A DNA stretch of 64,000 bases from Streptomyces sp. SN-593 (GTDB lineage Bacteria; Actinomycetota; Actinomycetes; Streptomycetales; Streptomycetaceae). Positions 5,657 through 49,606 of this stretch are shown piece by piece. How positions within the stretch are numbered: position 1 is the first letter of the stretch; every line of letters begins with the position of its first letter. The notes under the pieces were generated by a model that searched no databases, was not told the DNA's origin, and saw only the letters and a program-made list of their open reading frames with translations. The translations under genes and the position numbers were made by a program. The stretch spans positions 6,265,001 through 6,329,000 of the forward strand of contig NZ_AP018365.1 in NCBI RefSeq assembly GCF_016756395.1. Direction: 5' to 3'.

Positions 5657-5672
5657 CCGCGGGACTGGCGGC

Positions 5673-6344
5673 TCACCTGGTGCGGGGCGGCCCGACGAGT
5701 TCGACGCTGAGGGCGACGACTCCGAGGGCCTCCCGTTCGGGTGGGTAGATCTGACGGATGTTCGCAAGCTGCTCGTCGCGGGTGGCCAGCGGATTGACCG
5801 ACGCGACGTCCTCGTGGTCGAACATCTCCTCGAAGGTGTCGTAGCGGGCCACGCGTACCACCCGGGTCAGTACCTCGTCGCCCTGGCAGCGGAACCTGAT
5901 CATCGAGCCCTCCTTGATCTTGCGGCGACTGGAGTCGTTCACGCGGATCTCGGTGGTCTTGCGGCCGGTCGCGATGAGGTCGAAGTAGCGCTTGTAGATA
6001 CCCATCTCGTGGGCGCGGATCACGGGATCGGTGGGGCGTGCTGTCATGATGCGGCCGAGTTCCTTGACAGTGAACGAGCGGAAGAAGTGCTTGGGGTCGG
6101 TGAGCAACCGGCCGACCAACCAGACCAATGCGTCCACGTAGTTGTCAGTCGATCCCGGCCAAGCCGTGGTGTCGAGCATCCAGGGCTCGACATCTGCGGG
6201 CAGCACGTCCCTACCCTTGTCCCGCAGCAGGGACTTGGAGAGTTTCGCTCCGGTCGGGGCGAGGACCTGCGGCGTGAAAACGCGGACCGGTGTGCGCGTG
6301 ATCGGGGTGTTGAGAGCGCCGAGAGCACCATCGACGAGTTGCAT
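5673..6344 (-). CDS. C-terminal part of class I aaRS-like/ASCH protein (after frameshift)
   Basis: This 223-residue frame continues the protein encoded upstream at 7147-6345, but one base out of phase. It opens with an ATG that overlaps the other frame. Residues 34-38 read KLSKS, a KMSKS-like loop of class I aminoacyl-tRNA synthetases. Residues about 113-215 form an ASCH domain (signature KTTEIRV), a fold linked to RNA or modified-nucleoside binding, in place of the usual anticodon-binding region. It could be a separate protein started at 6344, but the KMSKS loop makes sense only when joined to the upstream half. A single-base deletion or sequencing error is the simplest reading. Function unknown. 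Confidence 0.75.
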   Translation of the reverse strand: MQLVDGALGALNTPITRTPVRVFTPQVLAPTGAKLSKSLLRDKGRDVLPADVEPWMLDTTAWPGSTDNYVDALVWLVGRLLTDPKHFFRSFTVKELGRIMTARPTDPVIRAHEMGIYKRYFDLIATGRKTTEIRVNDSSRRKIKEGSMIRFRCQGDEVLTRVVRVARYDTFEEMFDHEDVASVNPLATRDEQLANIRQIYPPEREALGVVALSVELVGPPRTR

Positions 6345-7147
6345 CCGAAGACCCAGTCGCCGCCCTTCATCATGACCTGCAACGTGTGGTGACCGCGGCT
6401 CAGGGTGCGTTCCTTGACCAGGTTGCGGTAGAGGGTGGCCAGGTCGAGATAGGCAAGATCGTCTTCAGGGTCTATGTGTGCCTCGTATCCGCCGTGGTCC
6501 AGACAGACGGCGGTGAAGGTTGCTCCGTCCTCGTCCAGGTGGGCCAATTTGGTGCGGTCCGCGCGCTTCTCCGCCCATCCGCACCTCGGACACGGGACTC
6601 GGACGTGGACGACGCCATGGGAGGGTGCCATCCACCATCTGATGTCTTCCAGCCTTTCCAGGGTGCGCAGGAACTCGGCGCGGAACCCGGGTGTGGCCTG
6701 CTGATCGGTATATGTCTCCACCCTGTAGTCGGTGTCGGTCGCCTCCGAGAGGGAGGCGAAGAACGCCCCGTAGTAGCCGTCGATGAGCTCGCCGACCCTG
6801 TCTTTGCCCAGCGCGTGGTAGTACGTCTGCTGGTAGGCGGTGTGCGTCTCCGGGTCGAGCACCACCTCGTAGGGTGCGTTGTCCAGGGCACCGAAGCGCA
6901 CCATCGTGTCGATGGAGAACTCCCGTCGCGCGGTCTTGGCGAGCAGGAACGCTGCGGTCTGGACGAGGTTCGTACCCAGGTGAGGTGCCCCGTTGATCTG
7001 AGTGCCCACCACGAACTCGATGCGGGTGGGCCGTGCGGCCAGGACGCGTGGGCGCAGGATGTCGATCGAACGCAGCAGCGCGTTGGCCAGCACACTGTTC
7101 GGTGAGATGAGTAAGCCGGGTTGTCCCTTGCGGTCCAACGCGTTCAC
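6044..7147 (-). CDS. N-terminal part of class I lysyl-tRNA-synthetase-like protein (frameshifted)
   Basis: Catalytic half of a class I aminoacyl-tRNA-synthetase-like protein, most like class I lysyl-tRNA synthetase. The HIGH-type motif PHLGTN is at residues 55-60, and a zinc-ribbon-like set CPRC...CLDH at 186-218. Homologous sequence stops near residue 268 (base 6345); the frame stays open to 6044 only as out-of-phase sequence. The partner half lies in the next frame at 6344-5673. The start is GTG at 7147, overlapping the upstream stop by 4 bases; TTG at 7138 has better spacing from GGAGG. Codon 12 is TTA (7112-7114), the rare leucine codon that needs bldA tRNA. Whether it charges tRNA is unknown. 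Confidence 0.75.
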   Translation of the reverse strand: MNALDRKGQPGLLISPNSVLANALLRSIDILRPRVLAARPTRIEFVVGTQINGAPHLGTNLVQTAAFLLAKTARREFSIDTMVRFGALDNAPYEVVLDPETHTAYQQTYYHALGKDRVGELIDGYYGAFFASLSEATDTDYRVETYTDQQATPGFRAEFLRTLERLEDIRWWMAPSHGVVHVRVPCPRCGWAEKRADRTKLAHLDEDGATFTAVCLDHGGYEAHIDPEDDLAYLDLATLYRNLVKERTLSRGHHTLQVMMKGGDWVFGCNSSMVLSALSTPRSRAHRSAFSRRRSSPRPERNSPSPCCGTRVGTCCPQMSSPGCSTPRLGRDRLTTTWTHWSGWSAGCSPTPSTSSARSLSRNSAAS

Positions 7148-7746
7148 CCTCCTTGGCCGGGTTTGGGCAGGCGCAGGTTGGCGCAGATGAAGTCCAGTCG
7201 GTTGCCCGCCGAGTCGGGGGCAACGAAGACGGGTTCGTATCCGGCGTCGTAGTACCCCTGCACGATCAGTTCGTGGACGCGGCGGATCTCGCGATCCTTG
7301 GCCCAGACGATGTCGTCGGGGTCCTCGAAGGTGTCCAGCGGATCGAGGACGAAGATCGTGTCGTAGCGGTAGCGGCGGGACGCTTCCTCCAACTGTTCGG
7401 CCGGTCTCAGCCCGAAGAACCCCTCCCATCCGTAGCCGTCGGGAATTCCTCTGTTGTAGAAGCGGACCCCGCCCGTGTGCGCCGTGTATTCAGTGATGAA
7501 CGCCTCGAGCACTTCCAAGGAGTACGCACGGCGGTCCTCTTTGAGGAGGTGCCGACCGAGACGTTCGCGATGCTTGCGGTAGATCTCCCTGCCGGGTTCC
7601 TGGACCATGCAGGGGATTCCGGCATCGTGGACCGCCTCGATCAGGTCGTCCTTGCCTGACGACGGGCCACCTGTGATGACGTAACGGCGGGGGGTGTCGG
7701 TCGCCGTTGCCTGCAGCATTGCGGCCAGGGCCGGATCGGTGGTCAC
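7144..7746 (-). CDS. AAA_28-like P-loop NTPase with atypical Walker A
   Basis: A 200-residue single-domain P-loop protein resembling the AAA_28 (NadR kinase/Ttd14-like) group. The loop near residues 26-34 reads GGPSSGKDD. The Ser/Thr that normally follows Lys and helps bind magnesium is replaced by Asp, so nucleotide hydrolysis may be weak or altered. Other family-like stretches include NRGIPDGYGW and FVLDPLDTFEDP. GTG at 7746 overlaps the stop of the upstream gene, and its own stop overlaps the GTG of the synthetase-like gene. Translational coupling suggests the three products act together. The substrate cannot be told from the sequence. Confidence 0.75.
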   Translation of the reverse strand: MTTDPALAAMLQATATDTPRRYVITGGPSSGKDDLIEAVHDAGIPCMVQEPGREIYRKHRERLGRHLLKEDRRAYSLEVLEAFITEYTAHTGGVRFYNRGIPDGYGWEGFFGLRPAEQLEEASRRYRYDTIFVLDPLDTFEDPDDIVWAKDREIRRVHELIVQGYYDAGYEPVFVAPDSAGNRLDFICANLRLPKPGQGG

Positions 7747-8651
7747 GACGGTAGTCCGTTCTCTTCATCGGGGGCTTGCCGGGCGGGTGCGGGGCCTGCG
7801 GAGAAGCCGTGGGCCCAGGCGTTGCCCAGTTCGATCTCGTCGTGGAGGGCGGAAACGAACTGCTCCCGGCTGACACCGCCGCTGGCGGCCTCGGTCAAGC
7901 GGGACACCTGTGCCGAGGTCAGGGTCGGCGTCCAGCCGGCCAGTGCGACCAGCTCTTCCGTCGAGGAGTACTGGCCGGGGTGGAACGCGTCGGTGTAACT
8001 GATCGCTTCGGCACGGGCTGCTGCCCACCGCCAGGCGGCGGTCACCGATGTGTGCAGGATGTCCCTCCGGTCCGCGCGTAGGCTGACCAGCCGCTCGACA
8101 GCGAGAAGTTCGGCGCGTGCGGCGTAGATCGCCGACCACAGCCGGCTGAGCTGTTCCTCGTGCTCGGTGACTTCCCAGGCGAAGGGGTCGGCCTGGATCG
8201 GGCTCCGTTCGGTTGTGGGGGCCAGCCGTGGCGCGATCACCGCTGAACGGGTGAATCGATCGGCATCAGCCAGTAGTTCCCACGCGATCGTCTCCACCAG
8301 CTTGGGTTCGACCCGCTTGCGGAAATGGTGGACTTCGTGCCCGGCTTGCTCAGCGGCCAGGATCCGCCGGGTGGTGAGATTCTGCCCCCCATCGGCCGGC
8401 GGCAGTCCGAACAGCGCCCGCGCGGCCGCGGCATAGCGGGTGTCGGGGAAACGGGCGAGCAGGCCCCGCAACGTGCCGTCGAGAGCCGTGACGCGGCTGG
8501 CTTCGTCCGTGGGGTCAATCGCTCTGGCAAGGACCCCGCGAAGGTCGAGGAGAGCTTTGTCCGCGCTGCCCGGTGTGACCGGCAGGCCGGGCCGGAGCAG
8601 TCGTCTTACCGCGGCCACGACCTCTTCCTCCACTGGGCTTTTTCTGGGCAT
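7743..8651 (-). CDS. Unknown 302-aa protein, first gene of the aaRS/ASCH operon
   Basis: Not recognised. It is a mostly helical, soluble protein without membrane segments or signal peptide, with charged and aromatic motifs such as GHEVHHFRKRVEPK mid-protein and a Pro/Glu-rich tail. The chosen start is ATG at 8651 (MPRKSP); an upstream ATG at 8696 would translate through the inverted repeat and is less likely. The first seven codons lie inside the left arm of a 21-bp inverted repeat (8631-8689), so transcript folding could control translation. No clear ribosome-binding site is seen. Its stop overlaps the start of the P-loop gene. It may be a sensor or partner for the two downstream proteins. 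Confidence 0.65.
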   Translation of the reverse strand: MPRKSPVEEEVVAAVRRLLRPGLPVTPGSADKALLDLRGVLARAIDPTDEASRVTALDGTLRGLLARFPDTRYAAAARALFGLPPADGGQNLTTRRILAAEQAGHEVHHFRKRVEPKLVETIAWELLADADRFTRSAVIAPRLAPTTERSPIQADPFAWEVTEHEEQLSRLWSAIYAARAELLAVERLVSLRADRRDILHTSVTAAWRWAAARAEAISYTDAFHPGQYSSTEELVALAGWTPTLTSAQVSRLTEAASGGVSREQFVSALHDEIELGNAWAHGFSAGPAPARQAPDEENGLPS

Positions 8652-8689
8652 GGCACGAGTGAAGCACGATGCCCAGAAAAAGCCCAGTG
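8631..8689. repeat. Perfect 21-bp inverted repeat over the operon start codon
   Basis: The arms are 8631-8651 and 8669-8689, perfectly complementary over 21 bp with a 17-bp spacer. The core of the left arm on the plus strand is GGGCTTTTTCTGGGCAT. Both arms carry an ATG that begins an MPRKSP peptide, one on each strand. GCACGA occurs twice in and beside the spacer. It could be a dimeric-regulator operator or an RNA hairpin covering the start codon. Confidence 0.9.
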
Positions 8690-8732
8690 CCTGCACTGCT
8701 CTGCCTACTGCCCCGCGGGGGTGTCGGTGCGG

Positions 8733-9002
8733 TCAGGGATGCGTGGCCGGTGTGCTCGCACCTTGAGGTCGAGGCCGGGCCTCGTGCTCCACGGTCTTGG
8801 ACCGGCCTACGTGGCTCGGACGGGTGCCTTTCTCGGCCGTGGCCGTGTGGGCATAGGCGGCCGCGGTGGTCTCGATCAGGGTCAGGGAGGGCTCCGGGGG
8901 GAGGGCGGCGTTCGTGAGGAGGTCGTGGGCCATACGGGCGAGGGACACCGCGGCCGGATCGGTCTGGTGGGTGCCGGTGTGGTCGGTCGCGAAGTGGAGC
9001 AC
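8733..9002 (-). CDS. Small 89-aa protein downstream of XRE regulator
   Basis: Starts at GTG 9002, eleven codons' worth of spacing or less from the stop of the XRE gene and in the same frame, with GAGGAG five bases before it. It could be a real translationally coupled gene. The stretch around ALPPEPSLTLIE resembles the C-terminal end of DUF5753 domains, so it may instead be the detached tail of the upstream regulator after a premature TAA stop. No membrane segment or known domain is visible. Confidence 0.45.
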   Translation of the reverse strand: MLHFATDHTGTHQTDPAAVSLARMAHDLLTNAALPPEPSLTLIETTAAAYAHTATAEKGTRPSHVGRSKTVEHEARPRPQGASTPATHP

Positions 9003-9017
9003 CGGACTCTCCTCGGC

Positions 9018-9692
9018 TTACGTCATGACGCGCAGCGCCCCGTCGGTGGCGGCCGGGTGCGGGGCGGCCGTCAGCGGGAGGACGCGCAGGGTCACGCGCT
9101 CGCGCCGCACAAGCTCCGCGAGGTGGCGCAACTGCTCGGCCATCACCTCGGCCCCACCGAGCGGGCGTAGCAGCGCGGCCTCGCCCAGCACCGCGCTGTA
9201 GCGGGGGCCGAGGGGGTCCCGTAGGACCGGAGTGCGCGACAGCCGCGCCTCCCAGCGGTGGCGGGTGGGGCGGTCCGCGAGCAGCGTGGCGTACGTCCGT
9301 GTGACGGCCGCCGCGTACGCGTCCGTCTGGAGCAGGCCCGGGACCAGCGCGGCGTCCCACTCCCGGATGGCCGTCGCCAGCCACTCCCACTCCGGCAGGG
9401 CTGCGAGGCGCCCGGGGGCCGGCGCGGAGCGGGCGGCCTCGACATTGCGTTCGAAGAAGCCGCCGGTGTCCAGGAGTTCGTCCACCGCGGGGGTCAACTC
9501 GTCCGGCAGGCGCCGCTCTCCCTGCTCGATCCTCGCCAGGAACGACATCTCGATGTGCAGCTTTGCCGCCAGGTCCACGAGGCTCAGCCCGGCCCGCTCC
9601 CGGTGGTACCTCAACTCCGCGCCGTACAGCGCCCGCGCGGACAGCGTCGTGTCCAGCCTCTTCCCGGAAAATCGGCCACGGTTCACAGACAT
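9018..9692 (-). CDS. XRE-family regulator with DUF5753 domain, shortened
   Basis: DNA-binding regulator of the Streptomyces Scr1-like group. A helix-turn-helix occupies residues about 25-75 (LSLVDLAAKLHIEMSFLARIEQGERR), followed by a DUF5753 domain with its typical LVPGLLQTDAYAAAV motif. At 224 residues it is about 50 shorter than usual, ending at a TAA where the domain normally continues. The start ATG at 9692 is preceded by AAGGAG. It is transcribed away from the second XRE gene at 10023. The ligand and targets of this family are mostly unknown; members often pair with a DUF397 protein, which this one lacks. Confidence 0.85.
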   Translation of the reverse strand: MSVNRGRFSGKRLDTTLSARALYGAELRYHRERAGLSLVDLAAKLHIEMSFLARIEQGERRLPDELTPAVDELLDTGGFFERNVEAARSAPAPGRLAALPEWEWLATAIREWDAALVPGLLQTDAYAAAVTRTYATLLADRPTRHRWEARLSRTPVLRDPLGPRYSAVLGEAALLRPLGGAEVMAEQLRHLAELVRRERVTLRVLPLTAAPHPAATDGALRVMT

Positions 9693-10022
9693 GGCGGGGC
9701 TCCTTGTCTTCGGACGGGCGGGTGGCGAGCCTTCGGCGGCTGGCAGCCCGCTCCGCGGTCAGGGTGGATCGTCCGCCGCCGTCCGTGTCGTAACGAGAAG
9801 CAAGCGTGCGATCACTCAGAAGAATCCCGCAGGCTTTTTTAACGCACAAGTTAACGTTAAGATCTGGCGAAAATGGCACATGCCAGGTGCTCGGCAGGGC
9901 CGTGGTGCGGGGCGACTGCGCAGTCCGCGCGCGGGGCTGGGCGCTTTCCCGCGGGGCGGGCGGCTTCGGCTGGCCGACGCGTGGAAGCGCCGCCGGGACA
10001 GGGATCGAGAAGAGGGTGACAC
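9693..10022. other. Divergent intergenic region between two XRE regulators
   Basis: 330 bp hold the promoters of the two divergent regulator genes. The perfect 10-bp palindrome TTAACGTTAA at 9851-9860 is AT-rich against its surroundings and lies near the middle, a candidate shared operator. No gene is convincing here. Confidence 0.5.
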
Positions 10023-10886
10023 ATGGCCGCTCGGCGAGGACCGACCTATCTGCGGGTCATGCTCGGCAAGGAACTGCGCGCACTGCGCGAGCGGAACGGC
10101 CTGACGGCGGAGCACGTCTCCGTGGAACTCGGTTTTTCGAGGGTCAAGCTGAGCCGGGTCGAGACGGGTGACATCCCGTTGCCGAAGCTCGCGGACCTCG
10201 AAAGGCTGATGGACCGCTACGGCGTCGAGGATCCGGACGACCGGGACGCGCTCCTCCACATGCAGCGTGGTTCGCTGAGCCGGGAGCCGTTCACCTCGTA
10301 CCGGAACCTGTTGCCGTCCGGACTGCCTCTCTATCTCGGCCTGGAGCGGGATGCCACCCGTATCCGTGGTCACGAGAACCGGGTGGTGCATGGCCTCCTC
10401 CAGACGCCGGCGTACGCCGAAGCGCTCGCCCTGTCGGCGAAGGTCGTCGAGGAACGCACCACGGAGTTCGTCGAAACGGGTGTGCGCCTGCGTATGGAGC
10501 GGAAGCAGTTGCTCACGCAGCCTGACGGACCTGAGGTGCACATCGTGCTGACCGAGAACACCCTTCGTACCGTGATCGGATCTCCCGAGGTGATGCGCGC
10601 GCAGTACGCGGAGATCGTCCGACTGTGCGAGGCGGACACGGTGGAGGTCCAGATCATCCCCGACGACCTGCCGACGTACCGCGCGAGTTGGAACTTCACC
10701 ATCCTTGACTTCACCGACCTCGGCTCGGTGGTCCAGAGCGACAGCGCCATGGCGACGACGATGTGGTCGAAACCCGGTGACGTGGGTTTCTATCAGCGAC
10801 AGTTCGATGCCATGGTCAAGGCGGCACCGGGGCCGGCCCAGACGCCCGGCTTCCTCCGCGACCTCGAAGAAAGCCTGTGGACATGA
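10023..10886 (+). CDS. XRE-family regulator with DUF5753 domain
   Basis: A 287-residue regulator. The N-terminal helix-turn-helix at about residues 15-65 includes LTAEHVSVELGFSRVKLSRVE, and the DUF5753 domain follows with VVHGLLQTPAYAEAL and a complete C-terminal end. The start ATG at 10023 is preceded by a purine-rich AGAAGAGGG. Its stop overlaps the start of a DUF397 gene in the ATGA arrangement, the classical Streptomyces pair likened to toxin-antitoxin systems (Scr1/Scr2) and also to the bldB/whiJ-type developmental regulators. The actual role is not visible from the sequence. Confidence 0.9.
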   Translation: MAARRGPTYLRVMLGKELRALRERNGLTAEHVSVELGFSRVKLSRVETGDIPLPKLADLERLMDRYGVEDPDDRDALLHMQRGSLSREPFTSYRNLLPSGLPLYLGLERDATRIRGHENRVVHGLLQTPAYAEALALSAKVVEERTTEFVETGVRLRMERKQLLTQPDGPEVHIVLTENTLRTVIGSPEVMRAQYAEIVRLCEADTVEVQIIPDDLPTYRASWNFTILDFTDLGSVVQSDSAMATTMWSKPGDVGFYQRQFDAMVKAAPGPAQTPGFLRDLEESLWT

Positions 10887-11128
10887 CGATCCAAGCCGCA
10901 CGCGCCCGCTCGACCGACCCGCACCTGTGCCCCGCCCGGGCATGGCGCAAGTCCTCCTACAGCTCGCAGGACAACGGGAACTGCGTCGAGGTCGCGCCGC
11001 TCGACGGCGTCGTCGGGATACGCGACTCCAAGGACAAGGAGGGCGCCGCGCTTCTCGTCACCGCGGCCGGGTGGGCCTCCTTCGTGGGCCTGGTGCGTTC
11101 CGGCGCCGTCGACTTCGGCGTCGTCTGA
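10883..11128 (+). CDS. DUF397 small protein
   Basis: An 81-residue DUF397 protein. The hallmark WRKSSYSSQDNGNCVEVA lies near residue 20, followed by the GIRDSKD motif. ATG at 10883 overlaps the stop of the XRE/DUF5753 gene, so the two are co-translated. In known cases DUF397 proteins act with the neighbouring regulator, in development or as an apparent toxin-like partner. The alternative GTG at 10877 adds two residues and is less well placed. Confidence 0.85.
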   Translation: MTIQAARARSTDPHLCPARAWRKSSYSSQDNGNCVEVAPLDGVVGIRDSKDKEGAALLVTAAGWASFVGLVRSGAVDFGVV

Positions 11129-48332: not shown

Positions 48333-48380
48333 TACGGTGCGCTGGTGCGTTCATCGCACCAGCGGGACAAATGAACATCC

Positions 48381-48503
48381 GACAGGGGAGCGCCTGAGAC
48401 GGCGCTGAGAGTGCGGCTGGGACGACGCGACGGCAGGACCGTCGCCGGGCCCAGGCCGCAGACCCTCCCACCTGATCCGGGTCATACCGGCGTAGGGAGT
48501 CAA
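48381..48503 (+). promoter_or_regulatory. TPP riboswitch (THI element)
   Basis: The conserved elements appear in order: GGGGAGCGCC, GGCGCTGAGAGTGCGG, CCGCAGACCCT, ACCTGATCCGGGTCATACC and GGCGTAGGGAG. The final GTAGGGAG (48492-48499) also supplies the Shine-Dalgarno of thiB, so binding of thiamine pyrophosphate would hide the ribosome site and reduce thiamine uptake. Confidence 0.94.
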
Positions 48504-48508
48504 CGACA

Positions 48509-49606
48509 GTGAACAGCACCATCCGTCGGCGTGCCATGGGCGCGCTCGTCCTCGCCACCGCGGGCGCCACGCTCCTGGCCGGCTGCGGCGGTTCGGGCTC
48601 CGGGTCCGGGAGCGCGTCCGGCACCCCGTCGAAGACCGTCACCCTGGTCAGCCACGACTCGTTCGCCGCCTCCAAGTCGGTGATGGCGCAGTTCACCAAG
48701 GAGACCGGCTACACCGTCAAGGTGCTGCGCGGCGGGGACGCGGGCGCGGCGGTCAACCAGGCGATCCTCACCAAGGACCACCCGCGCGGCGACGTGTTCT
48801 TCGGCGTGGACAACACCCTGCTCTCCCGCGCCCTCGACAACGGCCTGTTCGACCCGTACACGGCCAAGGGCCTGGACCAGGTGCCCTCCGACGTCCAGCT
48901 CGACGCCGCGCAGCACCGCGTCACGCCGATCGACTCCGGCGACGTGTGCGTCAACTACGACCGCGCCTACTTCACCTCGCACCACCTCGCGCCGCCGCAG
49001 ACCTTCGCCGACCTGGTCAAGCCGCAGTACAAGAACCTGCTGGTCACCGAGAACGTGTCCACCTCCTCACCGGGCCTGGCCTTCCTGCTGGGCACGGCCG
49101 CCACCTACGGCGACGACGGATGGCAGGCGTACTGGAAGAAGCTGAAGGCCAACGGCGTCCAGGTCGTCGACAGCTGGGAGCAGGCGTACGACAGCACCTT
49201 CTCCGGGTCGGCCGCGGGGAGGAAGGCCAAGGGCGACAAGCCGCTGGTGGTCTCCTACGCCTCCAGCCCGCCCGCCGAGGTGGTCGGCGTCACCCCGCAG
49301 CCCGCGCAGTCACCCGTCGGCGTGGCCACCGGCACCTGCTTCCGCCAGATCGAGTTCGCCGGGGTGCTGCACGGCGCGAAGAACCCCGCCGGCGCGAAGG
49401 CGTTCATCGACTTCATGCTCAGCCGGACCTTCCAGCAGGACATGCCGCTCCAGATGTACGTCGACCCGGTGGTCAAGGGCGCCGTCGAGCCGGAGCTGTT
49501 CACCAAGTACGGCGCGAAGGTCCCGCACCCGACCACGATCGCGCCCGACAAGATCGCCGCGAAGCGGGACGACTGGGTGAAGTCGTGGAACTCGATCGTC
49601 CTGTAG
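48509..49606 (+). CDS. thiB: Thiamine-binding lipoprotein of ABC importer
   Basis: 365 residues with a lipoprotein signal ending in LLAGC. Periplasmic-type binding protein of the ThiB/TbpA family: TLVSHDSFAASK near residue 50 and GVDNTLLSRAL. GTG at 48509 is placed nine bases after the riboswitch Shine-Dalgarno. Probably delivers thiamine or its phosphates to ThiP. Confidence 0.92.
   Translation: MNSTIRRRAMGALVLATAGATLLAGCGGSGSGSGSASGTPSKTVTLVSHDSFAASKSVMAQFTKETGYTVKVLRGGDAGAAVNQAILTKDHPRGDVFFGVDNTLLSRALDNGLFDPYTAKGLDQVPSDVQLDAAQHRVTPIDSGDVCVNYDRAYFTSHHLAPPQTFADLVKPQYKNLLVTENVSTSSPGLAFLLGTAATYGDDGWQAYWKKLKANGVQVVDSWEQAYDSTFSGSAAGRKAKGDKPLVVSYASSPPAEVVGVTPQPAQSPVGVATGTCFRQIEFAGVLHGAKNPAGAKAFIDFMLSRTFQQDMPLQMYVDPVVKGAVEPELFTKYGAKVPHPTTIAPDKIAAKRDDWVKSWNSIVL

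What the first reader, a model, noticed from the sequence alone, without database searches (positions are those of the whole stretch)
5673..8651. A coupled operon joining a class I aaRS-like core, an ASCH domain, a P-loop NTPase and an unknown 302-aa protein
Three minus-strand genes overlap by four bases at each junction. One encodes a lysyl-tRNA-synthetase-like core (PHLGTN, KLSKS) whose anticodon-binding part is replaced by ASCH, a fold tied to RNA or modified nucleosides. The other two are a small NTPase and an unfamiliar helical protein. The block interrupts an otherwise conserved smc-glcP-ftsY order and is visibly less GC-rich. I know of no described pathway with this set. It could aminoacylate something other than a normal tRNA, or serve defence or stress.
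Basis: partly seen in the sequence, partly recalled or inferred. Interest (0 to 1): 0.75.

Follow-up and report, generated by a model that had tools for sequence, protein, structure and literature searches.

The report
Mobile self-regulated tRNA-synthetase-like gene cassette
A three-gene cassette that moves between soil bacteria carries an enzyme built like a tRNA-charging enzyme but with an RNA/nucleoside-type binding domain in place of its tRNA-reading part; it has its own control switch, its function is unknown, and the copy in this genome has a broken enzyme gene.

Summary
A helical protein, a P-loop protein and a class I LysRS-like core joined to ASCH form one unit that recurs in the same order in 52 of 80 homologous loci. 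Its boundaries are sharp: homology runs from a 36-bp operator to the ASCH stop codon, in unrelated flanks, including plasmids. Structure prediction supports the aaRS reading: the best fold match is class I LysRS, and the HIGH-like, KLSKS and zinc residues are invariant. ASCH replaces the anticodon-binding domain. The operator occurs only at this cassette in the 9-Mb genome and only in loci with the helical gene, so the helical protein is probably its autoregulator. The enzyme gene is disrupted at different sites in 11 of 58 copies, while the other two genes are intact in all 58 (p=4e-4). That pattern fits a costly activity kept in check. My best reading is an accessory module that aminoacylates a non-canonical RNA or nucleoside acceptor. 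Defence or toxin-like use and small-molecule biosynthesis both stay open. The biochemical function is not shown.

The parts
7743..8651 (-). 302-aa all-helical protein; proposed autoregulator. N-terminal domain (about residues 8-130) with an HTH-like conserved segment RRxxAAxxxGxExxHFRKRxEP
   Evidence: AF2 pLDDT 89 with no PDB or viral fold match; N-terminal domain shared with macro-domain proteins
7144..7746 (-). 200-aa AAA_28 P-loop protein with degenerate Walker A (GGPSSGKD)
   Evidence: Pfam AAA_28 E 1.2e-23; alignment
6044..7147 (-). N-terminal part of the class I LysRS-like core as encoded; homologous only over 7147 to about 6345, then 99 frameshifted residues
6971..6985 (-). HIGH-like motif PHLGT
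   Evidence: invariant in 39 of 39 except the central L/I/V
6494..6592 (-). zinc-knuckle region C-x2-C ... C-x2-H
   Evidence: all four ligands invariant in 39 of 39
6342..6344 (-). site of the 1-nt deletion that breaks the synthetase-ASCH frame in this genome
   Evidence: DNA alignment with L034
5673..6344 (-). C-terminal part of the synthetase plus ASCH, now a separate ORF (223 aa)
6231..6245 (-). KMSKS-like motif KLSKS
   Evidence: invariant in 39 of 39
5694..6005 (-). ASCH domain with octapeptide GxKxxExR
   Evidence: Pfam PF04266; octapeptide conserved in 29 of 29; fold match PH0355 2z0t
8669..8689 (-). promoter-side operator arm with direct repeat TGGGC-N6-TGGGC (CTGGGCTTTTTCTGGGCAT)
   Evidence: in the genome only at the two arms
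8631..8651 (-). second operator arm, inverted copy overlapping the first codons of the 302-aa gene
   Evidence: 21/21 complementary to the first arm; base covariation between arms
8658..8663 (-). putative -10 element (TTCACT) between the arms, a few nt before ATG; suggests a leaderless transcript
   Evidence: conserved position among homologues; inference
5660..8853 (.). segment without match in the nearest relative, inserted at the glcP-ftsY hot spot
   Evidence: BLASTN against L269; synteny

Best explanation
This is a horizontally moving, self-regulated accessory module of three genes. The 302-aa helical protein is the autoregulator: it binds the TGGGC repeats at its own promoter and holds expression down (inferred). 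The synthetase-ASCH protein activates a lysine-like (diamino) amino acid with ATP in a class I LysRS-type site. Because ASCH stands where the anticodon-binding domain should be, it transfers the amino acid to an RNA or nucleoside acceptor that is not chosen by an anticodon (inferred). The P-loop protein is its obligate partner in this clade, perhaps binding a nucleotide or the acceptor (inferred). The enzyme is costly when unchecked, which suits a conflict-type or tightly induced role (inferred). Shown: gene order, exact boundaries, operator, fold, invariant catalytic motifs, mobility, selective disruption of the enzyme gene, and the broken state of this copy.
For: Same order in 52 of 80 loci across Actinomycetota; the P-loop plus synthetase-ASCH pair alone in two other contigs from outside (L117, L118). 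Homology between cassettes in unrelated flanks runs from -36 nt to the ASCH stop; no fourth gene is conserved. Plasmid copies; a related pair in a temperate phage beside its integrase. Operator direct repeat within 130 nt upstream in 52 of 55 loci, palindrome arms covary (Fisher p 0.004); in the genome only at the two arms; exact motif found only in loci with the helical gene. Fold: class I LysRS 1IRX E 1e-9; ASCH domain matches PH0355 at 36% identity. HIGH, KLSKS, Zn invariant. Purifying selection, dN/dS about 0.02-0.36. Enzyme frame disrupted in 11 of 58 copies, the other two genes in none, p 4e-4. Catalytic-core relatives sit beside diaminopropionate-type biosynthesis genes, hinting at a diamino-acid substrate.
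Against: No biochemistry. No tRNA gene near 14 of 15 cassettes or relatives tested, so no dedicated RNA substrate is visible. The P-loop partner has a degenerate Walker A. The helical protein has no fold match, so DNA binding rests on operator logic only. Relatives of the core in Macrococcus and Pantoea plasmids sit in small-molecule-like operons, which favours an amide-ligase reading. No defence annotation. The operator-arm covariation is not corrected for phylogeny, and some frameshifts may be assembly errors.
Confidence: 0.42

Rival explanations
1. Specialised metabolism: the LysRS-like enzyme is an amino-acid ligase that makes an aminoacylated small molecule or nucleoside, and ASCH and the P-loop protein handle the nucleoside part. 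The cassette is a minimal biosynthetic or self-protection unit, not a conflict system.
For: Catalytic-core relatives without ASCH lie beside SbnA/SbnB-like, AurF-like, carbamoyltransferase and methyltransferase genes (L059 and similar), beside two ATP-grasp ligases and an MFS exporter (Macrococcus), and beside methyltransferase, LOG-family, DMT-transporter and ITPase-like genes (Pantoea). AAA_28 looks kinase-like to me (own knowledge).
Against: No transporter or other biosynthetic gene belongs to the conserved cassette. ASCH is absent from those biosynthetic relatives. Selective loss of only the enzyme gene is less expected for a dispensable pathway.
Confidence: 0.27
2. Toxin-antitoxin or abortive-infection module: synthetase-ASCH is the toxic effector (mischarging or modifying RNA), and the helical protein and/or P-loop protein are antitoxin and sensor.
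For: Autoregulated promoter with a cassette-specific operator; mobility; disruption only in the putative effector gene, with the putative restraining genes kept; the helical N-terminal domain is shared with macro-domain proteins, two of which lie next to RES-domain genes.
Against: No toxicity or neutralisation data. The synthetase is strongly conserved. No PADLOC match. The Streptomyces relatives keep aaRS plus ASCH without the helical or P-loop genes, so those are not universal antitoxins.
Confidence: 0.2
3. A second lysyl-tRNA synthetase for ordinary or stressed translation, or a drug-resistant duplicate.
For: LysRS-like fold and intact motifs.
Against: No anticodon-binding domain; PF01921 is not recognised; the genome has its own regular class I LysRS at C1:5051101-5052222; distribution is sporadic.
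Confidence: 0.05
4. Chance neighbourhood of unrelated decayed genes.
For: The window copy is broken.
Against: Conserved order and exact boundaries in dozens of genomes, and purifying selection.
Confidence: 0.01

Closest known systems
Class I lysyl-tRNA synthetase (PF01921; Pyrococcus horikoshii 1IRX)
   Same: Rossmann catalytic core with HIGH-like and KMSKS-like motifs and a Cys/His zinc site in the same order; best PDB fold match
   Different: Not recognised by the Pfam model (best E 0.11 in one of 39 members); C-terminal anticodon-binding domain replaced by ASCH; encoded in a mobile regulated cassette beside a housekeeping LysRS1
GluQ-RS / YadB (anticodon-binding-domain-free GluRS core that glutamylates queuosine; own knowledge)
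   Same: Class I core without anticodon-binding domain; YadB is among the fold matches (1nzj); precedent for aminoacylating a nucleoside in RNA
   Different: GluRS rather than LysRS type; no ASCH; housekeeping
ASCH superfamily: E. coli YqfB (PMC6972931), archaeal PH0355
   Same: Pfam ASCH, fold match to PH0355 and octapeptide G-X-K-X-X-[ETS]-X-R
   Different: The YqfB nucleophile Thr24 position is Glu in 29 of 29, so YqfB-type amidohydrolase chemistry is not expected; here fused to a synthetase
PHROG 35625 'tRNA synthetase' plus PHROG 19935 'RNA-binding protein' (Streptomyces phages Picard and Mojorita)
   Same: Same synthetase family (E 1e-126) and same ASCH partner as adjacent overlapping genes
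   Different: Split genes, XRE and histidine-kinase-like neighbours instead of helical and P-loop genes; no function known
PyrN-type and other aaRS-like enzymes of natural-product clusters (9l8v; PMC8664883)
   Same: aaRS fold reused to activate amino acids outside translation; appears among fold matches
   Different: PyrN is a cupin fusion (own knowledge); no ASCH; part of larger clusters
Toxin-antitoxin / autoregulated conflict cassettes
   Same: Compact autoregulated mobile operon; one gene preferentially lost
   Different: No tested toxicity; effector would be an aaRS-like enzyme, unlike any toxin class I know

Membership tests
Class I lysyl-tRNA synthetase | HIGH-like and KMSKS-like ATP motifs | tested here: met
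   PHxGT and KLSKS invariant in 39 of 39
Class I lysyl-tRNA synthetase | LysRS1 catalytic fold | tested here: met
   Best Foldseek PDB match 1IRX, E 1.2e-9, from an AF2 model of pLDDT 89; whole-chain TM only about 0.43
Class I lysyl-tRNA synthetase | Recognition by the PF01921 model above its cut-off | tested here: not met
   E 0.11 in one of 39 members; none for the window protein
Class I lysyl-tRNA synthetase | C-terminal helical anticodon-binding domain | tested here: not met
   ASCH domain instead
Class I lysyl-tRNA synthetase | Charges tRNA-Lys with lysine | not testable with these tools
   needs enzyme assay
ASCH superfamily | ASCH profile and octapeptide GxKxx[ETS]xR | tested here: met
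   motif definition from PMC9599836
YqfB-type ASCH amidohydrolase | Nucleophilic Thr at octapeptide position 6 | tested here: not met
   Glu in 29 of 29; role of Thr24 from PMC6972931
AAA_28 P-loop proteins | Profile above cut-off | tested here: met
   84.6 bits against a cut-off of 27
AAA_28 P-loop proteins | Canonical Walker A GxxxxGK[ST] for Mg-NTP | tested here: not met
   GK[DE] in 23 of 25, GKS and GKR in the two outgroups
Toxin-antitoxin module | Autoregulated compact operon | tested here: inconclusive
   Cassette-specific operator; binding not tested
Toxin-antitoxin module | Toxic gene neutralised by partner | not testable with these tools
   Only indirect: selective disruption
Known anti-phage defence system | Match to a described system protein (PADLOC-DB 2.0.0) | tested here: not met
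   0 matches for all proteins

The most novel reading that the evidence does not exclude
A previously undescribed conflict or regulatory system in which an aaRS-like enzyme is the effector: a LysRS1-ASCH enzyme that aminoacylates a nucleoside or RNA target outside translation, restrained by a new all-helical DNA-binding autoregulator and a P-loop partner with an altered Walker A motif.
Probability: 0.25. Interest if true: 0.88.

Novelty: new variant of a known kind. Interest (0 to 1): 0.64.

Why it matters
Anticodon-domain-free synthetase relatives have repeatedly turned out to have new chemistry (modified tRNA nucleosides, protein lysylation, natural products; own knowledge). This family joins a class I LysRS core to ASCH, is widespread in actinomycetes and present in phages and plasmids, is annotated only as hypothetical or 'ASCH domain-containing', and comes as a minimal unit with its own operator, so it can be moved whole into a laboratory Streptomyces and tested directly.

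Tried and rejected
Programmed -1 frameshifting at 6343: rejected (no slippery heptamer; other copies broken elsewhere or by nonsense codons). Dedicated tRNA or structured RNA in the cassette: ARAGORN none in the window or in 14 of 15 loci, and the one tRNA-Phe lies 1.4 kb beyond the L118 genes; Rfam found only that tRNA and a distant TPP riboswitch in the window. Fourth conserved gene: none. Sequence-profile search of PDB: no significant hit for any of the three proteins. HHalign to housekeeping LysRS1: motifs collinear but E 0.011 and probability 4%, so fold carries the argument. Fold search of the helical protein: nothing in PDB or BFVD. Hit of the helical protein in L003: spurious. YqfB-like ac4C hydrolase role for ASCH: nucleophile missing. 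Literature searches for ASCH with aaRS found nothing relevant.
Full report
What is in the window. On the minus strand lie a 302-aa protein (8651-7743), a 200-aa P-loop protein (7746-7144) and a gene starting at GTG 7147, joined by two GTGA/ATGA-type 4-nt overlaps. The third gene is not intact. Against the closest homologue (L034, a genome of the same genus), one nucleotide is missing near 6343, so the synthetase core (7147 to about 6345) runs out of frame, and the C-terminal piece with KLSKS and ASCH is a separate ORF, 6344-5673. As read, this copy cannot make the joined enzyme unless the deletion is a sequencing error.

Insertion. In five of the seven genus relatives examined ftsY follows glcP directly (L270, L271, L273-L275); the other two also have DNA between them. 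The nearest relative (L269) has other genes between them, part of which (XRE, DUF397, hydrolase, TetR) is shared with the window. The non-matching segment is 5660-8853, nearly the cassette itself. In the genus, 3 of 35 genomes gave any match to the helical protein: the own genome, L034's genome (elsewhere, with other flanks) and one that proved spurious.

The unit across genomes. A profile of the synthetase found 171 relatives in GTDB genomes, the best 80 kept. In 52 of them helical, P-loop and synthetase-ASCH genes follow each other in this order: Pseudonocardiales, Streptosporangiales, Glycomyces, Nocardiopsis-type, Catenulispora and others. Two contigs from outside (a Planctomycetota MAG and an unclassified bacterium) have the P-loop plus synthetase-ASCH pair without the helical gene. 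Streptomyces mostly has synthetase and ASCH as two overlapping genes without either partner. No fourth gene is conserved. DNA similarity between cassettes with unrelated flanks starts about 36 nt before the helical ATG and stops at the ASCH stop codon. The unit is therefore operator plus three genes. Copies lie on plasmids and in viral contigs. The split pair is in the temperate Streptomyces phage Picard, beside a serine integrase. All three genes are under purifying selection.

Operator. Each helical gene is preceded by a direct repeat TGGGC-N6-TGGGC (52 of 55 loci) ending a few nt before a -10-like NNNACT and the ATG, which suggests a leaderless transcript (inference). In Pseudonocardiales-type copies and the window, the first codons of the gene form an inverted second arm. 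The variable base of the two arms covaries (CG 9, GC 9, CC 3, GG 1; Fisher p 0.004, not phylogenetically corrected), even though this changes the encoded residue (MPRKSP or MPTKSP). The motif occurs in the 9-Mb genome only at the two arms here, and among fetched loci the exact motif was found only where the helical gene is present. The simplest inference is that the helical protein is a cassette-specific autoregulator.

The synthetase. The AF2 model (L070; pLDDT 88.9, pTM 0.87) matches class I LysRS 1IRX best (E 1e-9), then GluRS and others; the C-terminal domain matches archaeal ASCH PH0355 at 36% identity. PHxGT, KLSKS, KGxDW and the C2CH zinc ligands are invariant. Sequence-only evidence for LysRS is weak. 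The genome has its own regular class I LysRS. ASCH has the family octapeptide (definition in PMC9599836) but Glu where YqfB has its nucleophilic Thr (PMC6972931). The amino acid is unknown. The only hint is that ASCH-less relatives sit beside SbnA/SbnB-like diaminopropionate genes.

The partners. The P-loop protein is AAA_28, but the Walker A Ser/Thr is Asp/Glu in 23 of 25 members, so NTP hydrolysis should not be assumed. The helical protein has no known fold. Its N-terminal domain, with the segment RRxxAAxxxGxxxxxFRKRxE, recurs in macro-domain proteins; RES-domain-like genes neighbour two of them, one confirmed by Pfam. Macro domains have been linked to NAD-related conflict systems (PMC7159879).

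Selective disruption. Of 58 copies with intact helical and P-loop genes, 11 have a nonsense or frameshift mutation in synthetase-ASCH, at different positions; none has the reverse. Length-proportional expectation gives p about 4e-4. Detection used the synthetase, so it was not biased against disrupted partners. This is what one expects if the enzyme is costly and the other two genes restrain it, but relaxed need for the enzyme alone would also do it.

How it most likely works. Shown: anatomy, boundaries, operator, fold, motifs, mobility and the disruption pattern. Inferred: repression by the helical protein; activation of a lysine-like amino acid; transfer to an RNA or nucleoside acceptor chosen through ASCH. 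Whether the purpose is conflict or a specialised product is open; I put conflict-type use and metabolite use close together and report both.

Known or not. PHROG and phage annotators already call the core 'tRNA synthetase', so the family itself has been seen. I found no description of the cassette, its operator or its function in the literature available here. I file it as a new variant of the aaRS-paralogue kind, not as a member of LysRS, since two defining features of LysRS were tested and not met.

Noticed in passing
window 48374-48515 (+): TPP riboswitch (RF00059) above its gathering score; presumably a thiamine gene leader.
   Followed up: no
window 9018-11128: Two DUF5753/XRE regulators and a DUF397 gene (Scr1-like modules) next to the cassette; also present at this hot spot in the nearest relative.
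   Followed up: partly
L211 1489-2592; L208 1531-2424, 741-1373; L209, L212, L213: Actinomycete macro-domain proteins share the helical protein's N-terminal domain; a RES-domain gene lies beside the one in L208 and apparently beside the one in L211: a possible separate NAD/ADP-ribose conflict module.
   Followed up: partly
L059 2020-8349; L055, L056, L057: Uncharacterised small-molecule-type cluster: SbnA/SbnB-like, AurF-like N-oxygenase, OTC-like carbamoyltransferase and methyltransferase genes, with an ASCH-less member of this synthetase family in L056 and L059, and transporter genes in L055, L057 and L059.
   Followed up: partly
L166 6503-10417 (Macrococcoides plasmid) and L165 8195-11975 (Pantoea plasmid): Distant relatives (24-30% identity) of the synthetase core in small-molecule-like operons with ATP-grasp ligases and an exporter, or with LOG-family, ITPase-like and methyltransferase genes.
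   Followed up: partly
L117 9462-9953; L035 6343-6621: A low-molecular-weight phosphotyrosine phosphatase gene directly follows the synthetase-ASCH gene in the Planctomycetota contig, and a fragment of one follows it in a Streptomyces-family genome.
   Followed up: no
L096 and L097 (Actinomadura violacea, one contig): Two near-identical cassette copies about 150 kb apart in one genome.
   Followed up: no
L060, L061, L062, L063, L064, L065: Degenerate copies of the synthetase gene are also frequent in the Streptomyces-type split version.
   Followed up: partly
L234 5125-5535: In a viral contig the split synthetase/ASCH pair is preceded by an HTH gene, a NUDIX gene and a small unknown gene, so each subgroup seems to carry its own regulator set.
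   Followed up: no
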